Source of the DNA: Thioploca ingrica
GTDB lineage: Bacteria > Pseudomonadota > Gammaproteobacteria > Beggiatoales > Beggiatoaceae
Assembly (NCBI GenBank): GCA_000828835.1
Contig: AP014633.1
Span: 310,001-374,000, forward strand
Length of the DNA stretch: 64,000 nt
Direction: 5' to 3'
Positions 3,589-22,464 of this stretch are shown here, piece after piece. The translations under genes and the position numbers were made by a program. The notes beneath the pieces were generated by a model, which ran no database searches, was not told the DNA's origin, and saw only the letters and a program-made list of their open reading frames with translations. The stretch's first letter is position 1; every line of letters starts with the position of its first letter.

Positions 3589-3616
3589 TATTGTGTTCCT
3601 GTGACTGTTCGGCGGG

Positions 3617-3850
3617 TTAGTCCCTTGACCATGATTTGTTCCACTTGTTGCCGTCAGTCAATATTAGCTCGCTGCCAGGAGGAAAGGTCGAAAGTGGTGG
3701 TCGGTACTGATACCGGTTTAGCAACGGGGGGGTATTACGTGTGTTAGCGTTGGAATCCGACCCTGATTCGCAAGCCGTCAGAGCAGCTACGAGCCAAACG
3801 CAAAATCCCTTGATGATGGCAAAATAGACGGGATCTCGTGAGATAGTCAT
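3617..3850 (-). CDS. Small predicted lipoprotein upstream of the hybrid kinase
   Basis: 77 codons, no family recognised. A hydrophobic segment (about 9-25) ends in a lipobox-like LTAC with C27 as the predicted lipidated cysteine, followed by ESGS, so the mature protein would be about 51 residues. Aspartate is not at position +2 (it is Glu), which leaves sorting to inner or outer membrane open. AGGAAA lies 8 bases before the ATG, good support for translation. Only 28 bases separate its stop from the membrane hybrid kinase start. It could be a sensory accessory protein for that kinase (inference), or a shortened remnant of a larger lipoprotein. Confidence 0.6.
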
Positions 3851-4017
3851 AATTGCTTTCCTAGCAATAACGATTGCGAAACAAAAACAGATGTACTTAA
3901 TTAGACACCACGAACAGATGAACCGATTTATTGGAGTGTATCAAATAATCGGTTGGCAAGAAATTGCTAATCTAGCTTGGCTAGCTAACTCATTTAGCCA
4001 CTTATCAATAAGAAAGC

Positions 4018-4043
4018 GAGGTAGTACATACAAATACTACCTC
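4018..4043 (-). terminator. Hairpin terminator after first cytochrome c gene
   Basis: A perfect 9-bp inverted repeat, GAGGTAGTA / TACTACCTC with an 8-base loop, lies just downstream of the 158-codon cytochrome gene. Read on the minus strand it is followed by GCTTTCTTAT, a weak U-rich tail. The same stem recurs after the second cytochrome gene at 4787-4815. Confidence 0.7.
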
Positions 4044-4081
4044 ACCTTTCAGCAAGTTATTGAGATAACTTTGCTTAAGCT

Positions 4082-4528
4082 TTATTTAGGTTCAGCGGGT
4101 TTAGCTTCTTCAGCGGGTTTCGCTTCTGCTTTGGCTTCACCACCTACAGCCAAAACCCATTCAACAATCTTTTTGGCTTCATCTTCAGTAACCATGGTAT
4201 TCGGCGTCATCACGGCACCACCATAAACTGGCGCTGAACCGGCGTTACCTTTCATAATTTTTTCTGCCAACATCTTCATCGTGCCCTCTTTATCTTTAGC
4301 GGCTTCTTCTTTGCGTTTGGCAGCGACTTCTTGGTAACTCGGACCGACTAATTTCTTATCGAGTTGATGGCAAGTTTTACAGGGAGGAACTTTCTTTTCC
4401 GTGAATTTTTCAAAAGCGGCCCAATTATCACCCGGTTTTAGATCGACAGCATCTTCTGCGAATGCAACACCGGCAAATAAAGTACCTGCGGTAGCAAGAC
4501 CGATACAAAGCGCTTTTAAAGTTGGCAT
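4082..4528 (-). CDS. Periplasmic monohaem c-type cytochrome (tandem copy 1)
   Basis: Secreted class I-like cytochrome c, 148 residues from the chosen start. The signal peptide (MPTLKALC to VAFA) is followed by the haem motif CKTCH, and a distal VMTPNTM segment can supply the axial Met. The C-terminus is a low-complexity A/K/P/E tail (AKAEAKPAEEAKPAEPK). An ATG ten codons upstream (4558) is in frame, but AAGGAA lies at the right distance from the ATG at 4528, and that start gives a clean signal peptide. The neighbouring gene is a close paralogue, so this is a tandem duplication. Both follow the molybdopterin oxidoreductase on the same strand. They are plausible electron carriers for that enzyme (inference from position). 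Confidence 0.93.
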   Translation of the reverse strand: MPTLKALCIGLATAGTLFAGVAFAEDAVDLKPGDNWAAFEKFTEKKVPPCKTCHQLDKKLVGPSYQEVAAKRKEEAAKDKEGTMKMLAEKIMKGNAGSAPVYGGAVMTPNTMVTEDEAKKIVEWVLAVGGEAKAEAKPAEEAKPAEPK

Positions 4529-4777
4529 AATAATATTTCCTTGGTTGATTGAACTCATTGTTTAGAGGTTGTGATAATAAATTTAATTTTACTTCAAATG
4601 ACGAATCTCTTTTTTATATCCAAGCTCATTTGGATGGCTAAGCCACTACCCCCATTATCCATCTCTGCTTGCCTTTGTTGCTTCAGAGTTGGAATAATAA
4701 TATGATAATTTCTTTAATAATCTATCTAAATTTCAAGTTGAATGCTGTTTTTCTGCTCGACAGAATCGGCTATAAAC

Positions 4778-4815
4778 AAAAAAAGCGAGGTAGTACAGAT
4801 GATAAATACTACCTC
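4778..4815 (-). terminator. Rho-independent terminator between the two cytochrome c genes
   Basis: The stem GAGGTAGTA/TACTACCTC (4787-4795 with 4807-4815) is followed on the minus strand by GC and a run of seven T (4778-4784). This is a textbook intrinsic terminator for the second cytochrome gene. The 324-base gap around it (4529-4852) otherwise holds only AT-rich sequence, presumably the promoter for the first cytochrome gene. Confidence 0.85.
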
Positions 4816-4852
4816 ACCTTTCAACCCATTATTTAAGTACTCTGCTTAAGTT

Positions 4853-5323
4853 TTATTTCGCTGTTTCAGCGGGTTTAGCTTCTTCAGCCGGTTTGGCTAC
4901 TGTAGTCGGTTTGGCTTCTTCCGCTTTAGCTTCACCACCTAAAGCCAAAACCCATTCAACCAGTTTTTTGGCTTCTTCTTCTGTAACCATAGTATTAGGT
5001 GTCATCACTGCTCCACCGTAGACTGCGGGTGAACCAGCATTGCCTTTCATAATTTTTTCTGCCAACATTTTCACCGTGCCTTCTTTATCTTTAGCGGCAT
5101 CTTCTTTGCGTTTGGCAGCGACGTCTTTGTATGCAGGACCAACTATTTTCTTATCTATAGAATGGCAAGTTTTGCAGGGGGGAACTTTCTTTTCCGTAAA
5201 TTTTTCAAAAGCGGCCCAGTCATCACCCGGCTTTAGATCGACTGCATCTGCTGCCAAAGCGATACCTGCAAATAAAATACTTCCTGCGGCAAGACCGATA
5301 CCAAGCGTTTTTAAAGTTGGCAT
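4853..5323 (-). CDS. Periplasmic monohaem c-type cytochrome (tandem copy 2)
   Basis: 156 residues from the chosen start. It has a signal peptide (MPTLKTLGIG to IALA), then AADAVDLKPGDDW, haem motif CKTCH, MTPNTM as probable axial-Met region and an A/E/K/P tail slightly longer than in copy 1. An in-frame ATG lies at 5353, but AAGGAG sits about 8 bases before the ATG at 5323 and that start restores the signal peptide. The two copies agree over almost the whole mature domain and differ mostly at the tail. Even the terminator stem is duplicated. The stop lies just upstream of its own terminator. The probable role is soluble periplasmic electron transfer. Confidence 0.93.
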   Translation of the reverse strand: MPTLKTLGIGLAAGSILFAGIALAADAVDLKPGDDWAAFEKFTEKKVPPCKTCHSIDKKIVGPAYKDVAAKRKEDAAKDKEGTVKMLAEKIMKGNAGSPAVYGGAVMTPNTMVTEEEAKKLVEWVLALGGEAKAEEAKPTTVAKPAEEAKPAETAK

Positions 5324-5387
5324 AATGACATCTCCTTTGTTTGTAAAACTCATTGTTCAGAAATTGTTGTAATCAATTTAATTTTAC

Positions 5388-7937
5388 TTAAGATGATGAA
5401 TCTCGACGAAAAATGTGACTTCGTGCCGTAGCGAGTCTATCCCAACCGGGACGATGACTCAGATCAGTTTTTTTAATATTGATTAATACGGTGTTATAAG
5501 CAAACGCACCCGCTGGACTAGGTTCATCTAAGGTCAAAAAGTCAGGATTACCTGAGCGATCAACACCGATTTTATCCAGATCCATCCACGCACCTTCATG
5601 TAAAACCGCCACCCTCGGCATACAACGTTCTGTTACATATGCTGGGGCTATTACCCTACCACGTGCGTTCCATAATTCTACAATATCACCGGTTTTAATG
5701 CCAAGCTTTTTCGCATCATCAGCATTCAAAGTGACTTCTTGTTCATAGGTTTCGCGTAATAAAGCGATATTGTGAAAAATAGAATGAGTACGCCAGCGCG
5801 GATGGGGTGTAATCAGGTGAAATGGATATTGAATTGTTTTATCGTCATTGAGCCATTCCCAAGGTTCGATCCATTTAGGAATAGCCGGAATTTCATAGCC
5901 ATAAGCTGTTCTTGACCAATCGTGGATTTGAGCTAAGTAAGTGGAGAAAATTTCTATTTTTCCAGAAGAAGTTGGCCAAGGTTGTCCTTGTTCTACATTA
6001 TCTTGGAAAGCGATTTGAGGACGTGATAGTTTAAATTTATAGATACCTTGTTGTTTAAATTCTGCCCAGGTCATTTCAACTTGTTGACGAGACATGACTT
6101 TGTTTTCCCACCATTCTTGTAAATACGCTTCATCTACCGCATCGTTGTTATGAAAATAATCTCGAGTCGCTTTAGGATTATATTTTTTGCCAAAACCAAG
6201 ACGGTAAGCCAATTCGGTTAACACTTGCAAATCAGTTTTACTTTCTCCCAAGGGTTCAATGACTTTGGGGCGATGAATATAATAATGCCCTTTATACCAA
6301 GGTAAAGCGACATCGTGACGTTCAAAATGAGTCGCAATCGGCAATAAAAGGTCTGCCCATAACCCCGAAGGCGTAATAGTGGCATCCATACAAACCACTA
6401 ATTCTAATTTATTAATCGCTTGAATGGCTTTATTGATATTCGGTAATTGATTAAACCAATTGGAACCTTGCCAAAAAATTCCTTTAATATTCGGTATTTG
6501 TCCATCAGTATCTGACTGCGGCCATAACCCAATTTCTTCACGTTTGACCTGAGGATAATTGAGTACACAATGTGCCCACCGATCGGATTTAATGGATTGT
6601 TTCCAAATATTACTATATTCATCATAGGGATAAGCAACGGCTTCGGGATGCCAACCTTTGCCAACACCTTCAGAGCAACCGCCCAATACGCCAATATTTC
6701 CCGTCATCGCTTGTAAAGCCGCTGCCATCCGATTATATTGTTCTCCGTAGGCATTACGCCCGGGTGCCCAAGAGGCTTTTAAGGCAGCCGGTTTGGTGGT
6801 GGCATAAAGGTGAGCCAATTTTTTAATATTCTCGGCGCTAACGCCACAAATGGGTTCTGCCCATTCCGGACTTTTGGGTTGTCCATCGGATTGACCTAGG
6901 ATGTAATCTTTGAAATTTTCACGTTTTCGAGCCCAAAACGGCATCGTACCGGCGTCCATACCTTGAGTAAATTTATTAATAAAATCTTGATCTTGAATAT
7001 TATTAATAAAAATATAATACGCCATAGCCGCTAACATAGCGGCATCGGTATTGGGTTTAATTGGAATCCACCAAGCATTATAGGATGCAGCAGAATCCGT
7101 GTATTGGGGATCAACGACCACGAATTGACAGCCCCGTTGTTTAGCCAGACGCATGTAATAAAAAGTATTACCCCCATGAAAAGTATAAGCGGGATTCCAA
7201 CCCCACATGATGATCAATTTGGAATGAGCAAAGGTATCATCTTCATTACCATCGTCAATGCTACCAAAAGTGACTTGGGAACTAAAAACCGTGCCTTGAT
7301 AAGAGGGGACTGACCAGGAACTGGTACGGCAACCAAACATACCGAGAAATCGTCCGAGTAAACCGCTAATTTGATCGGATTTATGTAAAACGCCCCATGA
7401 AGCCCCCGCATAACTTTGGTCTAACAGAGCCGTGTCTCCATACTCCCATTTTAAATACAGCATTTTTTCAGCGATAAAATCTAAAGCAGCGTCCCAAGAA
7501 ATTCGTTTAAATTTACCTTCACCGCGTTCGCCTACCCGTAACATGGGATAGAGTAACCGTTCTGCCGAGTAAACTCGCATACGGTAAGAACGTCCACGTA
7601 AACAAGCACGTAATTGAGGTAATTCTTCAGTATCGGTACCCCAAGGTGAACCCTGATATTGGCCATTATCAGTCGATAATCGAACAATAACATCCCCTTT
7701 CTTATGGGCCACTAAAACATGCCGAGAACCACAATTATGAGCACAACTCGTTACCACTGTGGTTAATTCATCATCTCGTGGGTAAGGTTCATAAGCAAAA
7801 GCCTTTGCCGACCGATTGGAAGTAACTAATCCATTGGCGATAGTGGAACCGGCTACGGCGGTTAGAAATCGGCGTCGCGTCATATTTAAATGAGATGCAA
7901 GCCATTTCAAGGTATTATTATTTACTTTATTTTCCAT
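5388..7937 (-). CDS. Tat-exported molybdopterin oxidoreductase, DMSO reductase family
   Basis: 849-residue catalytic subunit of the bis-MGD (DmsA-like) superfamily. A twin-arginine signal (RRRFLTAVAG, from residue 21) predicts folded export to the periplasm. The Fe-S motif is C65-x3-C69-x3-H73-x38-C112: the third ligand, cysteine in DmsA, is His here. Further family hallmarks are GWNPA near residue 245, VVVDPQYTD, a TKPAALKASWAPGR block, and the C-terminal cofactor domain with SGKIEIFS and TPHPRWRTHS. Serine-rich SVPSYQG is in the region of the Mo ligand. No dmsB or dmsC lies beside it; neighbours are two cytochromes c and a Met-rich secreted protein, suggesting a soluble enzyme using cytochrome c. 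The substrate (sulfoxide, N-oxide, sulfur or oxyanion) is undetermined. No clear Shine-Dalgarno is seen; Met19 is an alternative start. Confidence 0.92.
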   Translation of the reverse strand: MENKVNNNTLKWLASHLNMTRRRFLTAVAGSTIANGLVTSNRSAKAFAYEPYPRDDELTTVVTSCAHNCGSRHVLVAHKKGDVIVRLSTDNGQYQGSPWGTDTEELPQLRACLRGRSYRMRVYSAERLLYPMLRVGERGEGKFKRISWDAALDFIAEKMLYLKWEYGDTALLDQSYAGASWGVLHKSDQISGLLGRFLGMFGCRTSSWSVPSYQGTVFSSQVTFGSIDDGNEDDTFAHSKLIIMWGWNPAYTFHGGNTFYYMRLAKQRGCQFVVVDPQYTDSAASYNAWWIPIKPNTDAAMLAAMAYYIFINNIQDQDFINKFTQGMDAGTMPFWARKRENFKDYILGQSDGQPKSPEWAEPICGVSAENIKKLAHLYATTKPAALKASWAPGRNAYGEQYNRMAAALQAMTGNIGVLGGCSEGVGKGWHPEAVAYPYDEYSNIWKQSIKSDRWAHCVLNYPQVKREEIGLWPQSDTDGQIPNIKGIFWQGSNWFNQLPNINKAIQAINKLELVVCMDATITPSGLWADLLLPIATHFERHDVALPWYKGHYYIHRPKVIEPLGESKTDLQVLTELAYRLGFGKKYNPKATRDYFHNNDAVDEAYLQEWWENKVMSRQQVEMTWAEFKQQGIYKFKLSRPQIAFQDNVEQGQPWPTSSGKIEIFSTYLAQIHDWSRTAYGYEIPAIPKWIEPWEWLNDDKTIQYPFHLITPHPRWRTHSIFHNIALLRETYEQEVTLNADDAKKLGIKTGDIVELWNARGRVIAPAYVTERCMPRVAVLHEGAWMDLDKIGVDRSGNPDFLTLDEPSPAGAFAYNTVLINIKKTDLSHRPGWDRLATARSHIFRRDSSS

Positions 7938-8196: not shown

Positions 8197-8958
8197 TTAT
8201 GGCTTGTTCTCTACGCTATCGGTGACACTGGTCCCTTCGGTATTATTGTCTTCCATACTTTTTATAGCTTCACGATGGTTTTCATCTTCGGTTTTATTCA
8301 TACCCCACATATAGAATATATTATTACTGGGATACAAAATGAGATTACCCTCTTTATCGATCCAAAATCGACCAAATGTCATTTGATAGCCTTCAGGAGG
8401 AATACCGTACATACTGGCTATCCCTAACATACCACTCATCGCTGACATGCCGTACATGCCCGCCATACTAGGAGACATCCCCGCCATTCCCATCATGCTC
8501 GACATACCCCCCATACTAGGAGACATTCCCGCCATCCCCATCATGCTCGACATTCCCCCCATACTAGGAGACATCCCCGCCATCCCCATCATACTCGACA
8601 TTCCCCCCATACTAGGAGACATCCCCGCCATCCCCATCATACCGTTCATTCCTAACATACCACCCATTCCAAGCATTCCATACATGCTACTCATACCTAA
8701 CATACTGTTCATGTTAGTTGTTGTATCTATACTGGCTCCAGTCACTATCGGGTAAAGAACAATTTGACCATTGGGATAACGTTCATACCAGCCGCTGCTT
8801 TTAGTTATATTACCCACAATATATCCATTTCCTATACTTTTTTGATTGGATAGGTTAGTCATGTCAGTACTCAAAGCCGAAAGAGGTAGAAATAATATAT
8901 TGATAACTAAAAATAAATTTAATAAATTTTGCAATCGAGATGGGGATCTATAAATCAT
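8197..8958 (-). CDS. Secreted Met/Gly-rich repeat protein
   Basis: 253 residues, no family recognised. An N-terminal hydrophobic signal (about 11-30) precedes a short domain with YERYPNGQIVLYP. The central part (about 80-190) is extremely rich in Met, Gly and Ser, with a 16-residue unit of the type MGGMSSMMGMAGMSPS repeated about four times. After it comes FGRFWIDKEGNLILYPSNN, which resembles the N-terminal segment and may be a second copy of the same small fold. The AAAGGAG ribosome site fixes the ATG at 8958. Methionine clusters of this kind bind Cu(I) in copper-handling proteins, so metal binding or an adhesive/low-complexity surface role are both possible (inference). It lies upstream of the Mo enzyme on the same strand, 259 bases away. 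Confidence 0.85.
   Translation of the reverse strand: MIYRSPSRLQNLLNLFLVINILFLPLSALSTDMTNLSNQKSIGNGYIVGNITKSSGWYERYPNGQIVLYPIVTGASIDTTTNMNSMLGMSSMYGMLGMGGMLGMNGMMGMAGMSPSMGGMSSMMGMAGMSPSMGGMSSMMGMAGMSPSMGGMSSMMGMAGMSPSMAGMYGMSAMSGMLGIASMYGIPPEGYQMTFGRFWIDKEGNLILYPSNNIFYMWGMNKTEDENHREAIKSMEDNNTEGTSVTDSVENKP
8463..8643. repeat. 48-bp tandem repeat inside the Met-rich gene
   Basis: Units beginning with CTAGGAGACAT start at 8468, 8516, 8564 and 8612, exactly 48 bases apart. The fourth is partial and diverges after about 8640. Copies differ by only a few bases, many of them silent, so the array looks recently expanded and capable of copy-number change in steps of 16 residues without breaking the frame. 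Confidence 0.95.
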
Positions 8959-9771: not shown

Positions 9772-12700
9772 TTAAAATACTTCAAAACACTGTTGTCCCA
9801 TCACCCATAATCCCTTGTCTTTCGTTTCAAACACCTCGTTTTGCTCCGGCGAGAGAATCCCGTACAAACAATATTGACCGGTGGGTAAACTCGTGGATAA
9901 GGTTAAATCGAACAACGTCAAGGAACTGTGCGGTTTTCGTTGACCATACCAAGGTTTGGCTTCATTGACTGTTCTTAAGTCATTGGTGGCTTGGTTGAGG
10001 GTAAAAAAGTTGCCATCCGGTAAGACCACTGCGGCATAGAGGTCATAACCCCAACCTAAATCTTCGGTGAGCGTCGCTTTGAATAGTTCACCCCGTTGGT
10101 AGCGGGTTTTATCCAAGTAAATCTGAACTTGTGCCTGAGTAGGTGGATCAATTCCTCCTGTCATGGTTAGCGTAACGGGTATGTCACTACTAGCAACATT
10201 GCGGTTTTCGTCTTCGGCATAGAAAGTAATAGAATAATCACCATTGTATATCGCATCATTCCAAGTCGTTTGCCAGGTTTCTTGATAATTTGGTGTTTGT
10301 CCTAACGAAACACGTGGATAAGCTAAGATCGGTGTACCGTTGGTATCCAGCACTAAGTTCATTTTGGGTGGTCTTATCACTGCCCACGCACGCTTAACTT
10401 GACCTGAAGTCTTGGCCGTTAGCATAACCTCTTGACCTACCTGCAAACGACTTGAGGAGATCGCACTTTCAATGGCGAACGTATCGTCACCGGTAATTTT
10501 AGACAAGTTGTTGAGGTAATGTTTACCCAATTCGCCATGAGTACCATCATAAAACTGTGGGATTTGTTCAATATTCTGACTTTTATCGTCGGTAGAAGCG
10601 GTTGTTAATTTAGAGAGGTCTCCCACTAATTTTTGCTGTTCTTTATTAGCGTAATCAAAGGCTTCTTTGAAAGTCATCCCTTTATCTAAACTCTTGGCAA
10701 AAGAACGACTAAATCCTTGTTTGTCAGCACGGTCAAAATAGGCCACCGTGTCGTTGGTACTGCTAATGATTGCGCGGCGAAAACGTTCATCCAGGAGTTG
10801 TTGCGAAAAAGTCCCTGAGTAACAAGCGTCTATCAGGAGGAGGAGATCATTACCGGTTGCGGTTTGATAGTCATCTAAAAGCATTTTAAACTCTGGAGCC
10901 GTTATTTTGTCAATCTTGCTCAGTTGTAATTTATCGGTACTACCGTGGTCAATGAAGAATAGGTAAAGTGGCAGATCGAGTTTACCGCGTGCTTTGGCCC
11001 AGTCTAGGGCAGCTTTAACATCTTCAATCGTTATGGGGCGTTCTGGTTTGGGAGCATCCACGATATGGTCATCAAAACCGTCACCATTAAAGTCTGACCA
11101 GCCTTTAGGAGTTAGGTAATAAATTTCATCGTTATCAAAACCGCGTTTGTTAAGGACGTTATAAAAGTTACTACTGATGAATTCAGTGGTATCCCAAAGG
11201 GTGTTCTCGGATTGGGCACCACCACCCGCGATGATGATAGCGGCTCGTTGGTTAGCTTGTAGAGCTTGACAGGTGGCATCATCCACCGCTTGCTGAGTAC
11301 ACAGAGCAGTTTTTTGTCCAAAAGTAAGATAAGTTAAGCCATCTCCCAATGTTCCTATCCAGAGTCCACTTTGCTGATCCAGTAATAACGTTGAAATAAA
11401 TTTATCATTCAAACCGGAGTTAGTTTCATCAAAAAATGTCCATTGATTCTCTATACTGAGATGTAGTAAACCGCCGGGGGTTGCTATCCATAATCCGCCT
11501 TGTCCATCGTTTGATAGAGTAGTGACCCAATTCATCGGTAATGGCGAGTTACTGGTGTTAAATATCGTCCATTGATGATCAGCACTAAAATGGGCTAAGC
11601 CACCTTGATGCTCTAGGTCCCACCAAAAAGTGCCTATCCAGAGTCCATCTTGGTTGTCAAGCAATAACGTTTCTATGTTGTTAGAAGGTAAGGAAGAATT
11701 AGCGATGTTGAAAATAGTCCATTGCTGATCAGCACTGAGATGCGCCAAACCACCACCGCTTCTCTCTTCAACGCTAATACGTCCCATCGTACCTATCCAA
11801 AGTCCATTGTTACCATCATGGATTAAACTTGAAACTACGTTATCCGGCAACTGAGAATTTTCAGTGTTAAAAATGGTCCACTGTCCATTATCGTTAAGAT
11901 GGGTTAAACCGCCACCAATCAATTTTTCTACACTAAGATCTTCTACGGTTCCTACCCAAACACCATTTTTCCCATCGTCTAATAATGCGAATACGCTATT
12001 ATAAGGTAATGGTGAATTTTCGGTGTTAAAAATCGTCGATTTTTCATCGGCATGACGATGGATTAATCCGCCAGTCGTTCCTATCCAGATGCCATCATGA
12101 CCGTCAGTGGCTAAAGAAAGAATCCCATTGCTAGGTAATTCTGAATTGATCGTATTAAAAACTACCCACTGTTTATCAACAGTACGATAAGCTAAACCAT
12201 CGTTAAGCGTACCTAGCCACAAATTTCCTTGAGCATCATTGACTAATGCAGAAATTTGGTTGCCAGGAATGCTTATTTCCTTGGTCTCGAAAGTAACCCA
12301 TTCCTGTTTAGCGTTAAAATAACTGACGCCCCAAAAGCTACCCACCCATAAACCACCCTTTTTATCACTGGCTAAGCCGGTAACTCCTTTAGAAGGAAGG
12401 TTAGGGTTATTCGATATGGTCCATTCTCCATTCGCACTGAGATGAGCTAATCCACTGCCCAACGTACCCATCCACAAGCCCCCGTGCCCATCACTCAGGA
12501 GGGTACTGACCCAATAATTATCTGGTAACTCAGAATTGTCAGAATTAAAAATCGTCCACTCGCCGTTAGCATGACGATGTACTAAACCACCGCCAACAAA
12601 TTGATTATCTTGTTGAATTGTGGCTGCACCTATCCATAAACCACCGTAACCGTCATCTAATAAAGCTTGAATGCCGCCATTAAGAGGGAGTGGTGAATTT

Positions 12701-13323
12701 TCAGAACTAAAAACTGACCATTGATTATTCGCGTCACGATAAAACAAGTAACCTCCATGAGTACCGACCCACAAACCACCTTGCTGATCCGCTAACAAAG
12801 ATTCCACCCAGGTATCCGGTAATTTAAAATCGCCTGGTTGAAAAACAGTTGTCCATTTGCCACTGTTGTCACGGTGCGCCAAACCTTTCATTGTTCCTAC
12901 CCACAAACCGCCTTGACCATCGTTTAGCAAGGTTTCAATGAAATCAGATAATAACGCTGAATTCTCCGTGTTAAAAACGGTCCACTGTTCTGAAGCACTG
13001 AGATAAGCCAATCCACTTCCCGGTGTCCCTATCCATAATCCGCCATGAGTATCATCAACTAGGGTCTCAATGCTACTCTCTGGAAGCCCATCTTCTTTAG
13101 TAAAAATCCGCCGATTTCCCGTTGGTATATCTAGCTTTTCTAATCCACCGTCTGTTGCTATCCATAGGGTATTACCCTCTACTGACAAAACCAGTGCCGT
13201 AATCCATTCACGATTAGTAAACACAGACCAATTGGCATTTTCAAAATTTAAGTCGGCCGCTGGTGCTATTGAAAAACTCAGCAACCACAACAATAGGATG
13301 TACATCTTTAGTGAATTAAACAT
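9772..13323 (-). CDS. Secreted beta-propeller / caspase-like (clan CD) peptidase fusion
   Basis: 1183 residues. A signal peptide ends near APAAD. Residues about 27-660 carry some 15 repeats with the GGLWIGT / DGxGGLWVG signature of the two-component-regulator propeller (Reg_prop), enough for two seven-bladed propellers. A caspase-like domain follows (about 685-880), with catalytic H793 in FFIDHGS and C834 in LLLIDACYSG, as in C13/C14-type clan CD peptidases. The C-terminal 300 residues contain beta-rich modules (one near VQIYLDKTRYQRGE). The ATG at 13323 is preferred over 13329: AGGAG lies 8 bases from the former but only 2 from the latter. Propellers here probably bind a ligand or partner that gates the peptidase (inference). 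It lies in a run of minus-strand protease genes. Confidence 0.9.
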   Translation of the reverse strand: MFNSLKMYILLLWLLSFSIAPAADLNFENANWSVFTNREWITALVLSVEGNTLWIATDGGLEKLDIPTGNRRIFTKEDGLPESSIETLVDDTHGGLWIGTPGSGLAYLSASEQWTVFNTENSALLSDFIETLLNDGQGGLWVGTMKGLAHRDNSGKWTTVFQPGDFKLPDTWVESLLADQQGGLWVGTHGGYLFYRDANNQWSVFSSENSPLPLNGGIQALLDDGYGGLWIGAATIQQDNQFVGGGLVHRHANGEWTIFNSDNSELPDNYWVSTLLSDGHGGLWMGTLGSGLAHLSANGEWTISNNPNLPSKGVTGLASDKKGGLWVGSFWGVSYFNAKQEWVTFETKEISIPGNQISALVNDAQGNLWLGTLNDGLAYRTVDKQWVVFNTINSELPSNGILSLATDGHDGIWIGTTGGLIHRHADEKSTIFNTENSPLPYNSVFALLDDGKNGVWVGTVEDLSVEKLIGGGLTHLNDNGQWTIFNTENSQLPDNVVSSLIHDGNNGLWIGTMGRISVEERSGGGLAHLSADQQWTIFNIANSSLPSNNIETLLLDNQDGLWIGTFWWDLEHQGGLAHFSADHQWTIFNTSNSPLPMNWVTTLSNDGQGGLWIATPGGLLHLSIENQWTFFDETNSGLNDKFISTLLLDQQSGLWIGTLGDGLTYLTFGQKTALCTQQAVDDATCQALQANQRAAIIIAGGGAQSENTLWDTTEFISSNFYNVLNKRGFDNDEIYYLTPKGWSDFNGDGFDDHIVDAPKPERPITIEDVKAALDWAKARGKLDLPLYLFFIDHGSTDKLQLSKIDKITAPEFKMLLDDYQTATGNDLLLLIDACYSGTFSQQLLDERFRRAIISSTNDTVAYFDRADKQGFSRSFAKSLDKGMTFKEAFDYANKEQQKLVGDLSKLTTASTDDKSQNIEQIPQFYDGTHGELGKHYLNNLSKITGDDTFAIESAISSSRLQVGQEVMLTAKTSGQVKRAWAVIRPPKMNLVLDTNGTPILAYPRVSLGQTPNYQETWQTTWNDAIYNGDYSITFYAEDENRNVASSDIPVTLTMTGGIDPPTQAQVQIYLDKTRYQRGELFKATLTEDLGWGYDLYAAVVLPDGNFFTLNQATNDLRTVNEAKPWYGQRKPHSSLTLFDLTLSTSLPTGQYCLYGILSPEQNEVFETKDKGLWVMGQQCFEVF

Positions 13324-13362
13324 GATCATTTCTCCTCGTCAGAATCAGAATTAGCAGAATTT

Positions 13363-13414
13363 TAGAATTTTCAGAATGAATTTGGCAGAAATGTAGAATT
13401 TTCAGAATGAATTT
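13363..13414. repeat. Pair of 21-bp direct repeats
   Basis: TAGAATTTTCAGAATGAATTT occurs at 13363-13383 and again at 13394-13414, 31 bases apart, in the leader of the propeller-caspase gene. A partial third copy (CAGAATTAGCAGAATTTTAG) precedes it. Function unknown; direct repeats at promoter distance could be operator sites or simple replication slippage. Confidence 0.7.
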
Positions 13415-13474
13415 TGAAGTTTATCCGGTTAGTTCTTTAATTCTGATTTTGACAGTTAGGGTAAATTGGAGCAA

Positions 13475-14230
13475 TTACAATTCCTTCACCTCCATCGAGT
13501 CACTGTAGACTTCAATTCCCAACTGTTTAGCTACTGGGCACGCTTTGGCATCAACCATCGGCGAAATCACCAACATTCGCGTGACTGGCCGCTGATGCTT
13601 CTTCTCGTAAAAACGAACCTTACGTTCAAAACTATACATCCCGGCTTTGTCTATGGAAGATTTGATTTCGCAAATAATCAACAGACCATTTTTGATAATC
13701 ACATCTAACTCAATTTGGTCAGGTCGCCCAAACACCACGCCTTCATCATCATAGTCATTAATATTGAGCACCTGCACCCCAAAACTCTTTTCCAAAATCC
13801 CCACCAACGCATTGCGGAAGGAACTTTCTGATTTAATTCCCCAATGAGCACCGATGGCAGTAATACTGCGGTCATATTTCTTGGCGACGGCCATAATAGC
13901 TTCGTGCATCCTATCAAATTCACGTTTGGCATCCTCCCATTTACGATTTTGTTCATCCCACTTACGGTTTTGTTCTTGAGTATATTCCTCCCATTTGCGG
14001 TTTTGTTCTGCGGTGTACTTTTCCCATTTGCGCGTTTGTTCTTCTCGGTCTCGTCTTAATTCTCCTAAAAGTTGGTAGAATCGGTCATCGGTTTCTTTAC
14101 GATCCGCAAAATTCTGCCGCGCTAAGTCCAAAACTAGCCCTTGAATTTGCGCGTTTTGCTGCACAAGCGTGGGTAATCTCTGCAAAATCAGTTGGTCAAG
14201 TTGCTCAGAATCGATGGTCAGTTGGGTCAT
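13475..14230 (-). CDS. DUF3782-type PD-(D/E)XK nuclease-fold protein with coiled-coil stalk
   Basis: 251 residues from the ATG at 14230 (a TTG five codons upstream is in frame, but GAGG is well placed for the ATG). The N-terminal half is a long coiled coil containing near-identical NRKWEEYTQEQ / NRKWDEQ units, so stalk length is repeat-encoded. The C-terminal half (about 135-251) has the nuclease-fold pattern: IELD followed by ICEIKSS, the D...ExK catalytic set. DUF3782 proteins of this shape are frequent in cyanobacteria and large sulfur bacteria; activity has not been established. It sits between the C11 and caspase-like peptidase genes on the same strand. Confidence 0.85.
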   Translation of the reverse strand: MTQLTIDSEQLDQLILQRLPTLVQQNAQIQGLVLDLARQNFADRKETDDRFYQLLGELRRDREEQTRKWEKYTAEQNRKWEEYTQEQNRKWDEQNRKWEDAKREFDRMHEAIMAVAKKYDRSITAIGAHWGIKSESSFRNALVGILEKSFGVQVLNINDYDDEGVVFGRPDQIELDVIIKNGLLIICEIKSSIDKAGMYSFERKVRFYEKKHQRPVTRMLVISPMVDAKACPVAKQLGIEVYSDSMEVKEL

Positions 14231-14287
14231 ATTGATTTTCCTCAAGGTATAGAGTCCAAAACCGATTTTGGACTCGTCAATGATTAT

Positions 14288-16555
14288 TTAAAAAACGTTA
14301 AGACGTACACCGGCTTTGAACTGAAAATCGGTCGAGCGGCAACTTTCATCTTCATCGTTTGCTTGGCACACACAATCTCCTTTATCACAGAGCGATTCAA
14401 ACTGCGGTTGATTGTTGTGACTAAAATAACTCGCTGCAATAACCGCTTTTTGCAGGTCACACATTGAGTTAAGAATAGGGGCCGTCTCACCTACTACCAG
14501 CGAACGACTTTGCTGTGAACTCAGTTTACCCTCTTGCAGGTGGAGTACGGTAGGTGTGAGGGTATCGCCGGTGGAGAGCGGTTCATCGCGTCCCCAAAGA
14601 CTTGATTGCTGTGGTAAGACACTACAAGCCTTCCAACTCGCATTTTCATCTTGGCAGAGCGTGAGAATCGCCGGTCGGTCATTGTATAAAACCTCGGCCA
14701 GCCGTAATCTCTGGCTTTCGGTCACAGTGAGGTTGCTGCATTCCGTTTTACTGACACAGAGTTGATATTGACAGGCTTCTTGACCCTTGACTCCAATGGC
14801 TAAATTTTGTTCTAAGGGTTGATAACGATAGAGCGGTTTAATCAAGTAAACATCCATCCCTTGTTCAGCCGGCTGACCGTAATAGCCGTCAATAGAGATT
14901 ACCTCATCAGCTTGCAATTCCAACCATCTGGCAGCGGCGCAAATGAAGCCACTTAGACAAACAAATTCTCCATTGGGTTCAAAGGTATCAGCTTGGCGTC
15001 GCTGGCTATAATAGTCTAACGCTTGGCTGAATTGCGTATAGGCCGCCGGTAATACCGGTAAGTATGATTTCTCGCTACCAATATCGATGCTGATACGTCC
15101 AGCTTCTGGATTAATAGCTTTGACTGGGTCGTTGGTTTCATAATCGACCACTAGCCGCTGAAGGTTCGTTTGCAATTCTTCAGCGTAAGATTTTAATTGT
15201 GGAAACTGTAGAGAAATAGTTTGCAGAAAATTGTAAAGGTCAATACGAATAGTTTGCTGTTCGTCTAATGAACGCAATAATCTGCCGGTTTCTTTGATTG
15301 GGTAGCCGGGTACCCGAATGATACCTTGACTCAAAGCTTCATAACTGAGGAACCCTTCTTCCTTGAATTTATTTCCCAGTTCCTCGGCAAACTGACTGAA
15401 AGCCTCGCTAAATGTCGACAACTGGGTGAGGTCAAGGACGCTGTAAGTAATTTGAGAGGTGTTGAAAGTTTTTACCGCTTTACTCTGTTGGATATAGCCT
15501 TCTTTAGCTAGCTGGCCTACAACAATCCCCTCAGTGGGCAAAGCTGTGCTCAATTGACGAAGTAAATAAGTGTAGTCTATCCCATGTGCCGGTTCTATTT
15601 CCGCTGAGCCAGCCATCGCGTTGGCTACCGTAGCCGTAATTTCTGCGACTTCGATAGTAGCCATAACGCAGGCATCGTAGATAACAAGATCCAGCGGTTT
15701 GCCAAGCCCAGGACGAATCGTTTGAAAGGCCTGATGCAGTTGTGAGAGACTCATCATTTGCTCATTGGCATTTTTGGAAGTATCTTGGCCAAAACCTTGG
15801 GTACCACCGCCGTGATTCCACAAAATGAGCGCATTTTGTCGGGCTGGGAATTTATCTTTGGCCCACAAGACAAAATCGCTTAAGGTTTGAGGATTCCCCA
15901 TGGATTGTTCACCTAAATCTTCTAACACATACCATTGCCCATCCCGGATAAGCGAACGTTTGACCGTTTTCCAGCCTTCACGACTGGAACCCCCGGTAGC
16001 AATCACGACGTTGATATTGCGGTTTTCGGGGAATTGCATTCCGGCTAACATTTCTAAAATGTCCTTACTGGCGTTTCCCAACGTTTTTGCGGCCACTCTC
16101 TCTAAAGTTGAACCCACCTGATAAACCATGACTGTCCAAGCCTTTTCTTCGCTAGTCAGCGGAGGTGTGTTCTCAAAGATTCTTAGATATTTCTGCTGTT
16201 CAATGAGGTCACTAAAAGAATGACCAACGCCAGCATAGAGCTTGATGCCTTGCAATGAGTCCGCTGAAAAAGGGCCGAAACAATTAGGTCTGATTTTTTT
16301 CTCAAGAAACACCGGGGGATCAATCGGGGGTTGCCAAGCAGTGAAATTAATTGCACCGGTAGTAGTGGGCGAGAGGAAGAGCAAGTCTTTATCGTCTACC
16401 GTTAAGGCTAGATATATCTCTTTTTCAGCCGAATCCAGAAGAAAACAAAACGAAGTGCCTTGAGGACTGGGAGTGATATTAATACTGGCTAAGTCGTAGA
16501 TAGCAAAGGTAGGAAAGGTGAGCAGGTAACAACAGATGAATAGTTTGATACGCAT
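14288..16555 (-). CDS. Clostripain-like C11 cysteine peptidase, secreted
   Basis: 755 residues. A short signal peptide (to about residue 18) precedes a beta-rich N-terminal region. The C11 core (about 138-420) begins AWTVMVYQVGS and carries the catalytic H248 in LWNHGGG and C296 in IYDACVMAT. The C-terminal 300 residues are Cys-rich and lack an obvious family. Clan CD peptidases of this type cut after basic residues; specificity here is not readable. GAGGA lies 8 bases from the ATG. The gene is 57 bases upstream of the DUF3782 gene and on the same strand as the metzincin and propeller-caspase genes, suggesting a secreted proteolytic cluster. Confidence 0.92.
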   Translation of the reverse strand: MRIKLFICCYLLTFPTFAIYDLASINITPSPQGTSFCFLLDSAEKEIYLALTVDDKDLLFLSPTTTGAINFTAWQPPIDPPVFLEKKIRPNCFGPFSADSLQGIKLYAGVGHSFSDLIEQQKYLRIFENTPPLTSEEKAWTVMVYQVGSTLERVAAKTLGNASKDILEMLAGMQFPENRNINVVIATGGSSREGWKTVKRSLIRDGQWYVLEDLGEQSMGNPQTLSDFVLWAKDKFPARQNALILWNHGGGTQGFGQDTSKNANEQMMSLSQLHQAFQTIRPGLGKPLDLVIYDACVMATIEVAEITATVANAMAGSAEIEPAHGIDYTYLLRQLSTALPTEGIVVGQLAKEGYIQQSKAVKTFNTSQITYSVLDLTQLSTFSEAFSQFAEELGNKFKEEGFLSYEALSQGIIRVPGYPIKETGRLLRSLDEQQTIRIDLYNFLQTISLQFPQLKSYAEELQTNLQRLVVDYETNDPVKAINPEAGRISIDIGSEKSYLPVLPAAYTQFSQALDYYSQRRQADTFEPNGEFVCLSGFICAAARWLELQADEVISIDGYYGQPAEQGMDVYLIKPLYRYQPLEQNLAIGVKGQEACQYQLCVSKTECSNLTVTESQRLRLAEVLYNDRPAILTLCQDENASWKACSVLPQQSSLWGRDEPLSTGDTLTPTVLHLQEGKLSSQQSRSLVVGETAPILNSMCDLQKAVIAASYFSHNNQPQFESLCDKGDCVCQANDEDESCRSTDFQFKAGVRLNVF

Positions 16556-16619
16556 AGAAAATATCCTCTGAATTGGCAGACCTTTGGGATTGGTGAGTTC
16601 GCAAAGGTTTGTGGTTAGA

Positions 16620-18323
16620 TTACATACCCGGTAGCTGCGTGGTGGACGCCTGGAAATAATTGCCGTCAGAATCCCAATTGGAAACTACTTTAAGGATACA
16701 AATGGGTGAATCGTTGACTTGGATTCCCCAATCCATACTCAATATCAATTTTTGATTGTTATCATAGAGCCAACTCTCGGTGCGCGCTGGAATAATCCAG
16801 GTACCCCAAGTCCATTGCGGTATGTCGGGGTGATAGAGTTTCACCGTAACCGTGGAAACAGTTGGGTTATTGAACGCAATAGAGCCGCTATGCCCATCCC
16901 ATAAAGCAGCGCCCGGGCGGTAGTCATTGGGGTTATAGGTATAAGAACAACCGTTTCCGAGTGATCCTTGTGGATAAAAACCGGCAATTCCCGCTTTATC
17001 CTTGGCGGAAAGGTCAGTTTTAGGGGCTACGCAGTAGTATTCAGTGGTCGCATCGGGACATTTTTGCGGATCCGCTAAATCTTCCGCTGAAACCCAGGTT
17101 TTAGGCAGGTAATAAATCATGATGGAATTGGGGTCGAATTCAGTGACAAAAAAAGCACTTTTTGAATTGCCTTTGAGCAGGCTATCTATAACATTAGAGC
17201 GAACTTTTTGTTCATCCCATCCCCATTTTGCCAGTTCGGCAATAATCTGTGCTTCATTCCAATGGTAAGCCACATTGGGACTGTTATGTTCATGCTGTAA
17301 ACCAATCGCATGACCAAATTCGTGGAGTATCGTTCCTCTGAAATTTTCAGGAGAAGTTAAAAAACTGAATGCTAAGTTCATGGTTTCTTCATTTCGAGCT
17401 CTTTCTTGAGCATCCGTACCTACGACAGAGTATGAACCTCTTTCACGAAAACGTACCCGTATATCTGCTTCATCCCAAGAAGTTTTTCTAAAATAAATAT
17501 TGCCATATTGACTCCACGCACTGGCTGTCTCGATAACCACATCCGCTACCGCATTCTCGCAAGCACTTCTTTCCATGCCTACCGGACATACCGCTGGCGG
17601 GTTGTCAAAATTTGCACCATCAAAATCAAAGCCGACCTTTAGATTCTGACCATTAGGCCAGCGTAACGCATACTGTCCTACTAGACGACCATCGCTTTCT
17701 TCAGTAAGCAACGGGGTAACGTCTATCCGAACGGGCTGTTTTGCTTGTTCTACCGCTTTGGTATTGACGGCTTCTGGTATAATCTCTGCGACTATATCAA
17801 TTGGCAATTGGTTGGTTATCAACGTGCCGTCTTCAAGCAAATACCCAAAATAAACTTGCACCTGGCTTTCTGGCAAAAGCCCATTGTAAATCTCGAGGGA
17901 ATGGTTAGCTTGTAATGGGATTAGTTTTACAAAAGGGACGAGGCTAGTCACTTCAGAATTCCAGGGCAATATCCTCCCATCTTCGGCTAACATGAGCGAA
18001 ATGATATTATTGGGGGCATCTAGAGTAGAATAATGAACATAAACCACGAAGTCGGCCATTTTTCCCAGATGATTGGGATCAACCTTAATTTCACCTCTGA
18101 TTTTAACGGGATTGGCTACGTTGATATTACCATCACCACGGAAAAGTTCTTCTTTAATTGAAAAACCACCGCTGAAAGTCGCCGTAGTTTTAACGGGTCG
18201 TCCTTCAATATCAATACCCTGAGTGCCTAATTCAGGCAACTCCGCCGCTAATGTCTTCAATGGAATAAGCCCCAATGAAATGAGTAGCCCTAGGGTTGCA
18301 AGTAATCTGCTGAATTTCAACAT
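16620..18323 (-). CDS. Secreted metzincin zinc metallopeptidase
   Basis: 567 residues from the ATG at 18323, which has GGAGA at a good distance and begins a classical signal peptide (MLKFSRLLAT to KTLAAE). An in-frame extension to 18635 exists but runs through palindromic repeats and is not credible. The zinc site is HEFGHAIGLQH (334-344), followed by E345 as in astacins; a Met-turn-like SIMIYYLP follows. The first 200 residues form a beta-rich prodomain-like region, and the last 120 residues, with paired Cys and Trp, look like a beta-sandwich binding module. The family is between M10 (matrixin) and M12A (astacin). It is probably extracellular or periplasmic, alongside the C11 and caspase-like genes. 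Confidence 0.88.
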   Translation of the reverse strand: MLKFSRLLATLGLLISLGLIPLKTLAAELPELGTQGIDIEGRPVKTTATFSGGFSIKEELFRGDGNINVANPVKIRGEIKVDPNHLGKMADFVVYVHYSTLDAPNNIISLMLAEDGRILPWNSEVTSLVPFVKLIPLQANHSLEIYNGLLPESQVQVYFGYLLEDGTLITNQLPIDIVAEIIPEAVNTKAVEQAKQPVRIDVTPLLTEESDGRLVGQYALRWPNGQNLKVGFDFDGANFDNPPAVCPVGMERSACENAVADVVIETASAWSQYGNIYFRKTSWDEADIRVRFRERGSYSVVGTDAQERARNEETMNLAFSFLTSPENFRGTILHEFGHAIGLQHEHNSPNVAYHWNEAQIIAELAKWGWDEQKVRSNVIDSLLKGNSKSAFFVTEFDPNSIMIYYLPKTWVSAEDLADPQKCPDATTEYYCVAPKTDLSAKDKAGIAGFYPQGSLGNGCSYTYNPNDYRPGAALWDGHSGSIAFNNPTVSTVTVKLYHPDIPQWTWGTWIIPARTESWLYDNNQKLILSMDWGIQVNDSPICILKVVSNWDSDGNYFQASTTQLPGM

Positions 18324-21764: not shown

Positions 21765-22464
21765 TTATTGACCGATAGCGCAAAAAGCCGCCCAATGGTA
21801 GGGCGCTTGATAAGGTTGGATATTCGGATCTTTTTTATAAAAAAATTGGTGACGAAATGCCCTTTGCCAAGTCGCACCGACAGGTAATTGCTTGCTCCAA
21901 GCAAATAATGCTTGGTTCGTCGCGTTTCTTAACCACAACTGCGCTTGATTGAGCGCCACCGCCACCGAGGTATTGCCCCGGCGGTAGTTTTGATAGAATT
22001 TTATCATGAGTAAAGCGTTAGACAAATCATCGTTTCGGTATGATTTTGCGGCAAAGCATCTCGGGTATAAATTTGCAACGCCTGTTGGTAACATTCAATT
22101 GCCCGTTCCAGATTGTTGGCATGATCACCGTCGATGCGGTCATGATAGGCATTGCCCAGATTATTTTGGATACTTGCCTACGCTTGTAGCAAGGCGTCGC
22201 GAGTAAAAACGGTTGCTGCGATGTTATGAGCGGCGATGCTAAGTTCTAGGTTAATGGCTCTGTTACCCAAGGGAAACTGTTGAATTAAATTACCCAAATT
22301 GCCAATATATACTGCCATGTCATGTTTAACTGTTTCTTCTAAATGGGGAAACGTTGTTTCTGTCCAATCCTGTAGTAGTTTGATTAAATTGGCATTTAAT
22401 TTATCCAGATTCGCTTGCAACAAGGGATAGACAACATCCGAATTGCCTTCAATGTCGTCGCTTA
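21765..22464 (-). pseudogene. Broken TPR-CHAT protein gene
   Basis: Pieces of a TPR-containing CHAT peptidase remain in order. The 5' part (22178-22464) has helical repeat sequence ending ATVFTRDALLQA and then an in-frame TAG. Downstream of the stop the same frame continues as a TPR unit (NNLGNAYHDRIDGDHANNLE, then YQQALQIYTRDALPQN, about 22025-22177). A frame change then leads to the CHAT C-terminal end (21765-22060: LSNALLMIKFYQNYRRG and YHWAAFCAIG). The catalytic CHAT core with its His and Cys is missing, so an internal deletion, a frameshift and a nonsense codon have all accumulated. This is a dead relative of the clan CD peptidases found nearby. Confidence 0.8.

What the first reader, a model, noticed from the sequence alone, without database searches (positions are those of the whole stretch)
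9772..18323. Cluster of secreted clan CD and metzincin peptidases
Within 8.5 kb on one strand lie a propeller-caspase fusion, a C11 peptidase and a metzincin, all with signal peptides, plus a dead TPR-CHAT gene 3.5 kb further on. Three different clan CD lineages in one stretch is notable. The propeller array coupled to a caspase-like domain suggests ligand-gated proteolysis outside the cytoplasm, possibly in matrix remodelling, predation defence or programmed lysis.
Basis: partly seen in the sequence, partly recalled or inferred. Interest (0 to 1): 0.55.

Follow-up and report, generated by a model that had tools for sequence, protein, structure and literature searches.

The report
Conserved secreted protease gene cassette
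Large sulfur bacteria carry, side by side, genes for two secreted caspase-related proteases, one fused to an exchangeable recognition module, often with a further secreted peptidase next door; this looks like a small extracellular proteolytic switch that has not been described.

Summary
The genes are real. On the minus strand lie a metzincin (16620-18323), a C11 clostripain-type peptidase (14288-16555), an unrelated PDDEXK gene, and 'PropC' (9772-13329): twin propeller, C13 legumain-like peptidase, two Ig-like domains. The CHAT gene is a 109-aa remnant. Of 20 evaluable loci of this C11 subfamily, 18 have one within 6 kb, in large sulfur bacteria and two of three Desulfamplus MAGs; four distant C11 loci have none. 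Metzincin and CHAT linkage is not conserved beyond the Thioploca pair. A third secreted protein, absent from the window's genome, sits at 12 of 22 loci. PropC's N-terminal module is exchanged between relatives (propellers, LRR, LRR plus Calx-beta, WD40), and peptidases of other folds appear beside C11. Best reading: a secreted recognition-protease paired with an Arg/Lys-specific processing protease that matures it or its neighbours, as fragipain activates fragilysin. Linkage, catalytic residues and module swapping are shown; order of action, ligand and substrate are inferred.

The parts
9772..13329 (-). PropC: secreted twin-propeller + C13 legumain-like peptidase + two Ig-like domains (1185 aa)
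   Evidence: Reg_prop and Peptidase_C13 by Pfam; AF2 model mean pLDDT 79.6, pTM 0.51; H795 in 16 of 17 and C836 in 17 of 17 aligned rows
11323..13233 (-). twin beta-propeller (residues 33-669); 14 blades counted by hand from the predicted strands
   Evidence: structural match to PorZ 5m11 Z 30.6, 4.0 A over 574 residues, and to HTCS sensors BT3049/BT4663
10594..11259 (-). C13-like peptidase domain (residues 691-912)
   Evidence: profile A6 matches legumain 2.8e-7 and GPI transamidase 6e-5 in PDB sequences
9775..10509 (-). two Ig-like domains (residues 941-1062 and 1063-1185); the second is C-terminal in nearly every ORF seen
13475..14245 (-). PDDEXK_10/DUF3782 protein between C11 and PropC; probably an unrelated insertion
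   Evidence: shared only with the sister genome G040 among the neighbourhoods compared
14288..16555 (-). secreted C11 clostripain-type peptidase; catalytic H248/C296, S1 D294
   Evidence: fold match to clostripain 9cip Z 32.5 over 352 residues
14291..14989 (-). C-terminal beta-rich part of the C11 protein (residues 523-755) with ten cysteines invariant in 21 of 21 rows
16620..18323 (-). secreted astacin/myroilysin-like metzincin with an N-terminal domain that recurs in many other proteins of the genome
   Evidence: nearest solved relative myroilysin 2.6e-19
21765..22094 (-). CHAT C-terminal remnant; real, but not judged part of the cassette

Best explanation
A secreted proteolytic cassette. 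PropC is a recognition-protease: an exchangeable N-terminal module (here a twin propeller of the glycan-sensor/PorZ type) joined to a C13-like peptidase and two Ig-like domains. The neighbouring C11 enzyme is an extracytoplasmic Arg/Lys-specific processing peptidase that matures secreted zymogens encoded beside it: PropC everywhere, and a variable effector peptidase where present (the metzincin in Thioploca). SHOWN: conserved linkage, intact catalytic residues in the window genes, an acidic residue two before the catalytic Cys in both enzymes, module swapping, other peptidases in neighbouring positions. INFERRED: that C11 acts on PropC and/or the metzincin, that ligand binding by the N-terminal module sets where or when PropC cuts, and that the output is controlled extracellular proteolysis.
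For: Linkage: a C13-Ig protein lies within 6 kb of 18 of 20 evaluable loci of this C11 subfamily; two more loci end at a contig edge; 0 of 4 distant C11 loci. Genome level: 11 of 11 order genomes with a near-full-length C11 are among the 15 of 42 with a strong Ig2 match; Fisher p 3.2e-7, uncorrected for kinship, thresholds set after seeing the data. The dependence is one-sided: 4 genomes have a strong Ig2 match without this C11, as expected if C11 serves PropC. Cassette also in Desulfobacterota MAGs L140 and L141. Catalytic residues: C11 H248 20/21, C296 19/21, D294 21/21; PropC C836 17/17, H795 16/17, D/E at 834 17/17. The Asp two before the catalytic Cys is held to set Arg/Lys specificity in PmC11 (PMC4850288, passages read). 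Module swap: Reg_prop, LRR, LRR+Calx-beta, WD40 before the same C13 core. Next to C11: metzincin (window, G040); C39-like in L126, whose C11 is the nearest outside Thioploca at 100/99 support; papain C1 in L154; M23 fused to an X255-like domain in L140. Precedent: the C11 fragipain activates the metzincin fragilysin (PMC6964027, passages read).
Against: No direct evidence that C11 cuts PropC or the metzincin. C11 and C13-core trees agree only in part: distance correlation 0.51, and the nearest relative is the same for both in only 6 of 18 pairs, so partners are reshuffled. The metzincin link rests on two congeneric genomes. Sister G040 has PropC split into two frames at the propeller/C13 junction (real or assembly error). 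Two Desulfamplus C11 loci (L142, L154) have no C13 nearby. No conserved cleavage site was found. Many loci come from related MAGs and are not independent.
Confidence: 0.45

Rival explanations
1. Surface attachment device working like the PorZ-PorU pair of type IX secretion, in one chain: the propellers hold a surface glycan and the C13 domain, of the family that includes GPI transamidase and plant ligases, transfers secreted proteins onto it; Ig2 would be the retained C-terminal sorting domain.
For: The predicted propeller pair overlays PorZ at 4.0 A over 574 residues while HTCS sensors overlay only at 18-19 A; PorZ binds A-LPS and delivers it to the sortase PorU (PMC8545088, abstract read); C13 profile matches GPI transamidase 6e-5; Ig2 lies within 23 residues of the stop in 81 of 82 ORF rows (overlapping loci included), also in LRR proteins without peptidase.
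Against: Only three Ig2 places in the window's genome: two PropC and a fragment with a stop, so there is no set of tagged cargo. NCBIfam PorZ scores 116.7 against a cut-off of 260. PorU-like matches exist in 21 of 42 genomes but none over the cut-off, and those of the window's genome lie far from the cassette. Propeller packing in a pTM 0.51 model is uncertain.
Confidence: 0.15
2. Ordinary nutrient-scavenging or housekeeping exoproteases that travel together because they share regulation, without acting on each other.
For: Mixed peptidase folds, partner reshuffling, metzincin found elsewhere unlinked.
Against: C11 occurs only in genomes with a strong Ig2 match (11 of 11) and nearly always beside a C13-Ig protein, though PropC copies are numerous and scattered; inactive C11 copies with all structural cysteines kept sit in tandem with active ones, which suggests regulation rather than bulk digestion.
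Confidence: 0.25
3. Self-directed lysis or remodelling: the cassette cuts the cell's own envelope or sheath, for example in filament breakage.
For: M23 domain on the X255-like protein of L140; found mainly in large filamentous or chain-forming sulfur bacteria; T. nelsonii is rich in metacaspases (PMC4853749, passages read).
Against: The only envelope-hydrolase domain is in one Desulfamplus MAG; nothing links expression to lysis.
Confidence: 0.1

Closest known systems
Fragipain (C11) and fragilysin (metzincin) of Bacteroides fragilis
   Same: A secreted C11 Arg/Lys-type peptidase and a secreted metzincin zymogen in one genome; here the genes are adjacent.
   Different: The conserved partner here is a C13 protein, not the metzincin; no activation has been shown; the metzincin is closest to myroilysin, and its N-terminal domain is a recurrent domain rather than a known prodomain.
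[quoted passage not shown]
   Same: Twin seven-bladed propellers working with a clan CD peptidase outside the cell; beta-sandwich C-terminal domain.
   Different: Single chain, C13 rather than C25 peptidase, PorZ model cut-off not reached, no tagged cargo found in the window's genome.
Hybrid two-component sensors such as BT4663 (HTCS)
   Same: Same Reg_prop twin-propeller sensor type, 20-23% identity over about 550-566 residues.
   Different: Output is a peptidase, not a histidine kinase.
Legumain / asparaginyl endopeptidases and GPI transamidase (C13)
   Same: Profile match to the catalytic part, His-Cys pair, acidic residue two before the Cys.
   Different: Bacterial, with recognition module and Ig domains; Asn specificity not established.
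Clostripain (C11)
   Same: Fold of residues 136-522, dyad, S1 Asp.
   Different: Extra N-terminal beta domain and a cysteine-rich C-terminal part.

Membership tests
Clostripain family C11 (window 14288-16555) | C11 domain and His/Cys dyad with Asp two residues before the Cys | tested here: met
   Pfam C11 1.7e-31; H248, D294, C296; clostripain 9cip Z 32.5, 3.1 A over 352 residues
Clostripain family C11 (window 14288-16555) | Arg/Lys P1 activity and self-processing | not testable with these tools
   needs enzyme assays
Peptidase family C13 (PropC) | C13 sequence relationship and His/Cys dyad | tested here: met
   Pfam C13 4e-8 over its cut-off; A6 to legumain 2.8e-7, GPI transamidase 6e-5, no other clan CD family among the 50 sequences at E up to 1
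Peptidase family C13 (PropC) | asparaginyl S1 pocket of legumain | tested here: inconclusive
   the profile alignment to legumain starts after the N-terminal pocket residues
Astacin-like metzincins M12A (window 16620-18323) | HExxHxxGxxHE zinc motif and Met-turn | tested here: met
   HEFGHAIGLQHE and SIMIY in the sequence, conserved in four relatives; myroilysin 2.6e-19
T9SS PorZ | curated PorZ score | tested here: not met
   116.7 bits against 260
T9SS PorZ | two seven-bladed propellers in the PorZ arrangement | tested here: inconclusive
   Z 30.6, 4.0 A over 574 residues, but on a model of pTM 0.51
T9SS sortase PorU in these genomes | curated PorU score | tested here: not met
   0 of 42 genomes over the cut-off, 21 of 42 with a sub-threshold match
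HTCS sensors | histidine kinase output | tested here: not met
   C13 and Ig domains follow the propellers
Known anti-phage defence systems | match to a PADLOC model | tested here: not met
   no match for PropC, C11 or metzincin at E up to 0.01

The most novel reading that the evidence does not exclude
PropC is a one-chain counterpart of PorZ plus PorU that arose outside Bacteroidota: a glycan-holding twin propeller fused to a C13 transpeptidase that links secreted proteins to the cell surface or sheath of giant sulfur bacteria, with C11 maturing the enzyme and swapped N-terminal modules choosing the acceptor.
Probability: 0.08. Interest if true: 0.85.

Novelty: new variant of a known kind. Interest (0 to 1): 0.5.

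Why it matters
Clan CD peptidases are usually studied one at a time. Here two families are co-inherited as a pair, one with swappable receptor-like modules, in the largest known bacteria and in some sulfate reducers. If C11 matures PropC or its neighbours, this is a compact bacterial analogue of an extracellular protease cascade, and it would give a function to some of the many caspase-fold genes of these bacteria.

Tried and rejected
Cluster including metzincin and CHAT: rejected as a conserved unit. Metzincin catalytic homologues are few and unlinked outside Thioploca; CHAT is a remnant and one of 12 matches.

Ig2 as a general sorting tag: tested and not supported in the window's genome (three places), although Ig2 ends within 23 residues of the stop in 81 of 82 ORF rows (many rows are the same gene seen in overlapping loci; L207 is the exception, and three rows, L207 included, were flagged as cut at a locus end).

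Third gene X255 in the window: none in the window's genome or its sister at E up to 1e-5.

Strict co-evolution of C11 and C13 partner: only partial.

Kinship of the 924-aa Marithrix neighbour (L114) with the C39-like peptidase of L126: only an 18-residue match around CxxGCG; no Pfam or PDB peptidase match, so it is not counted as a peptidase.

Literature: searches listed no paper that, by its title and start of abstract, describes the C11-C13 pairing or a propeller-C13 fusion; only open-licence PMC papers are covered, so this is not proof of absence.

Rows left out: the C11 count ignores two short C11 fragments in L108 and treats tandem pairs as one locus; G040 and G031 loci end at contig edges; L142 has only 3.5 kb of contig on one side. 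The Fisher test counts as 'without C11' three genomes with only distant C11 matches (G001, G028, G029).
Full report
WHAT IS THERE. The window lies in a complete one-contig genome of 4,810,005 bases. The same-genus genome G040 has a contig of the same length (43,850) and gene content as one of Thioploca sp. SL_4_0, so the window is most likely from Thioploca; the size fits Thioploca ingrica, which I recall but could not check because the paper is not held. On the minus strand, in order of reading: metzincin 18323-16620, C11 16555-14288, PDDEXK_10/DUF3782 14245-13475, and PropC 13329-9772. Gaps are 64, 42 and 145 bp. Against G040 the four genes show dN/dS of 0.23 (metzincin), 0.15 (C11), 0.06 (PDDEXK), 0.21 (PropC propeller piece) and 0.11 (PropC C13-Ig piece). 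In G040 the PropC frame is broken in two at the propeller/C13 junction, by mutation or assembly error.

WHAT THE PROTEINS ARE. PropC: an AF2 model (mean pLDDT 79.6, pTM 0.51) shows a long beta-propeller region in which I count 14 blades, then a caspase-fold domain and two beta-sandwiches. Sequence says Reg_prop and Peptidase_C13. A profile of 17 rows of the catalytic part finds legumain (2.8e-7) and GPI transamidase (6e-5) in PDB sequences and no other clan CD family. The propeller pair matches HTCS sensors best by Foldseek E-value (about 20% identity) but overlays them as a whole only at 18-19 A, while PorZ (5m11) overlays at 4.0 A over 574 residues. C11: the model (pLDDT 81.7, pTM 0.78) matches clostripain 9cip at Z 32.5 over residues 136-522, with an N-terminal beta domain and a C-terminal part holding ten cysteines invariant in 21 of 21 rows, which fits an oxidising extracytoplasmic place. 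The aspartate two before the catalytic cysteine is invariant (21 of 21); in PmC11 this residue is thought to set Arg/Lys specificity (PMC4850288, passages read). Metzincin: zinc motif and Met-turn intact, nearest solved relative myroilysin (2.6e-19); its residues of about 15-190 match at many other places of the genome (24 matches in G000, itself included).

IS THE CLUSTER CONSERVED. I searched all 42 genomes that the order search returned for PropC, C11 and metzincin, fetched the neighbourhoods, and scanned the genome-contig collection for C11 relatives. In the final table, 22 loci belong to this C11 subfamily. Two end at contig edges beside C11 (G040, G031). Of the other 20, 18 have a C13-Ig protein within 6 kb: the window, T. 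nelsonii (two loci), G039, G020 (two), G016, two Marithrix genomes (two loci each), G018, G014, three loci of one SulCav MAG, and two Desulfamplus MAGs. L142 and L154, both from a third Desulfamplus MAG, have none; that MAG does hold C13 matches elsewhere. Four distantly related C11 loci have none. Eleven of 11 genomes with a near-full-length C11 are among the 15 of 42 with a strong Ig2 match (E up to 1e-30; Fisher p 3.2e-7, not corrected for kinship and with thresholds set after seeing the data). Four genomes have strong Ig2 matches without C11. An even sample of 369 genomes of the class gave three C11 matches, one of them partial. A third secreted protein of about 255 aa ('X255', alignment A2) lies within 6 kb at 12 of the 22 loci and is absent from the Thioploca pair.

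TRANSFER BETWEEN PHYLA. In a C11 tree of 24 rows, the Desulfamplus row L141 nests with Thiotrichaceae rows at 100/100 support, while L140, L142 and L154 lie outside the Thiotrichaceae rows. L141 also carries X255 at 72% identity to a Thiotrichaceae copy. Mis-binning of that contig is not excluded; its own C13 protein is divergent (28-31% identity). Gene exchange between a filamentous sulfate reducer and large sulfur oxidisers has been proposed (PMC6390638, start of abstract and passages read).

EXCHANGEABLE PARTS. The C13-Ig-Ig part is constant, but what precedes it changes: Reg_prop propellers (window, L126, L140), LRR (L128, T. nelsonii), LRR with Calx-beta (L133), WD40 (second Marithrix locus, L177). 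LRR proteins with Ig2 but no peptidase also exist. Tandem C11 pairs in T. nelsonii and G039 contain one active copy and one with the catalytic Cys changed to Ser (and in T. nelsonii the His to Tyr), while D294 and the ten structural cysteines are kept. Near C11 one finds other peptidases: metzincin in Thioploca, a C39-like enzyme in L126 (the closest C11 outside Thioploca), papain C1 in L154, and an M23 domain fused to the X255-like domain in L140.

HOW IT MOST LIKELY WORKS. All of these are secreted by the look of their N-termini (no predictor was run). The simplest reading is a two-enzyme extracellular module: PropC recognises a ligand through its exchangeable front part and cuts or joins a substrate; C11, an Arg/Lys-type enzyme, matures PropC and, where present, an effector zymogen next door. 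Fragipain, a C11 enzyme, activates the metzincin fragilysin (PMC6964027, passages read), which is a direct precedent for the window's C11-metzincin neighbours. One-sided dependence (C11 only with PropC, PropC also alone) fits a service role for C11. Inactive C11 copies hint at regulation. Not shown: any cleavage, any ligand, any complex. C11 and C13 distances agree only in part (r 0.51; same nearest relative in 6 of 18 pairs).

RIVALS. A PorZ/PorU-like attachment device is attractive from the propeller overlay, the C13 link to GPI transamidase and the C-terminal Ig2, but the window's genome has no set of Ig2-tagged cargo and the PorZ and PorU model cut-offs are not reached. Plain exoprotease scavenging does not explain the tight linkage. 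Lysis or sheath remodelling remains open.

PRIOR KNOWLEDGE. T. nelsonii was noted for 59 metacaspases (PF00656, a different clan CD family) without a mechanism (PMC4853749, passages read). A survey of prokaryotic caspase homologues lists WD40 and TPR partners; a term search of its text found no 'propeller', 'C11' or 'C13' (PMC3501461, passages read). The polymorphic-toxin survey treats caspase-like peptidases as releasing domains or toxins and notes clostripains as implicated in processing of surface proteins (PMC3482391, passages read). No listed paper describes this cassette by title or start of abstract (open-licence papers only).

VERDICT.

Noticed in passing
window 8197-8958 (-): Secreted-looking Met/Gly-rich repeat protein with a 48-bp tandem repeat (8446-8640), possibly metal binding.
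   Followed up: no
window 1285-7937 (-): DMSO/selenate-reductase-type molybdoenzyme (5388-7937) beside two c-type cytochrome-like genes and a TorS-like hybrid kinase.
   Followed up: no
G000:C1:1677506-1679596 and 1273431-1275551; 21 of 42 order genomes: C25/PorU-like proteins covering model positions 2-733 at E about 1e-81 to 1e-85 but below the curated cut-off: another clan CD family in these Gammaproteobacteria.
   Followed up: partly
G000, 24 matches of the metzincin query: The N-terminal domain of the metzincin (about residues 15-190) recurs in many large ORFs of the genome, a possible lineage-specific surface domain.
   Followed up: no
L105:8438-10645 and L107:4529-6760: Catalytically dead C11 copies in tandem with active ones in T. 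nelsonii and G039.
   Followed up: partly
L123:7859-17905: The second PropC of the window's genome sits next to a 2013-aa protein with TIR and WD40 domains, and another PropC-like fragment with a stop lies at 3.93 Mb.
   Followed up: no
L105:1666-3542, L107:10854-12860, L126:2119-4350: A C14 caspase followed by a possible outer-membrane barrel recurs near the C11 locus in three genomes.
   Followed up: partly
L140:8055-9347: X255-like N-terminal domain fused to an M23 peptidase in Desulfamplus.
   Followed up: no
L179:788-1594: A distant C11 (G028) has an X255-like gene 242 bp away, so X255 may be tied to C11 rather than to PropC.
   Followed up: no
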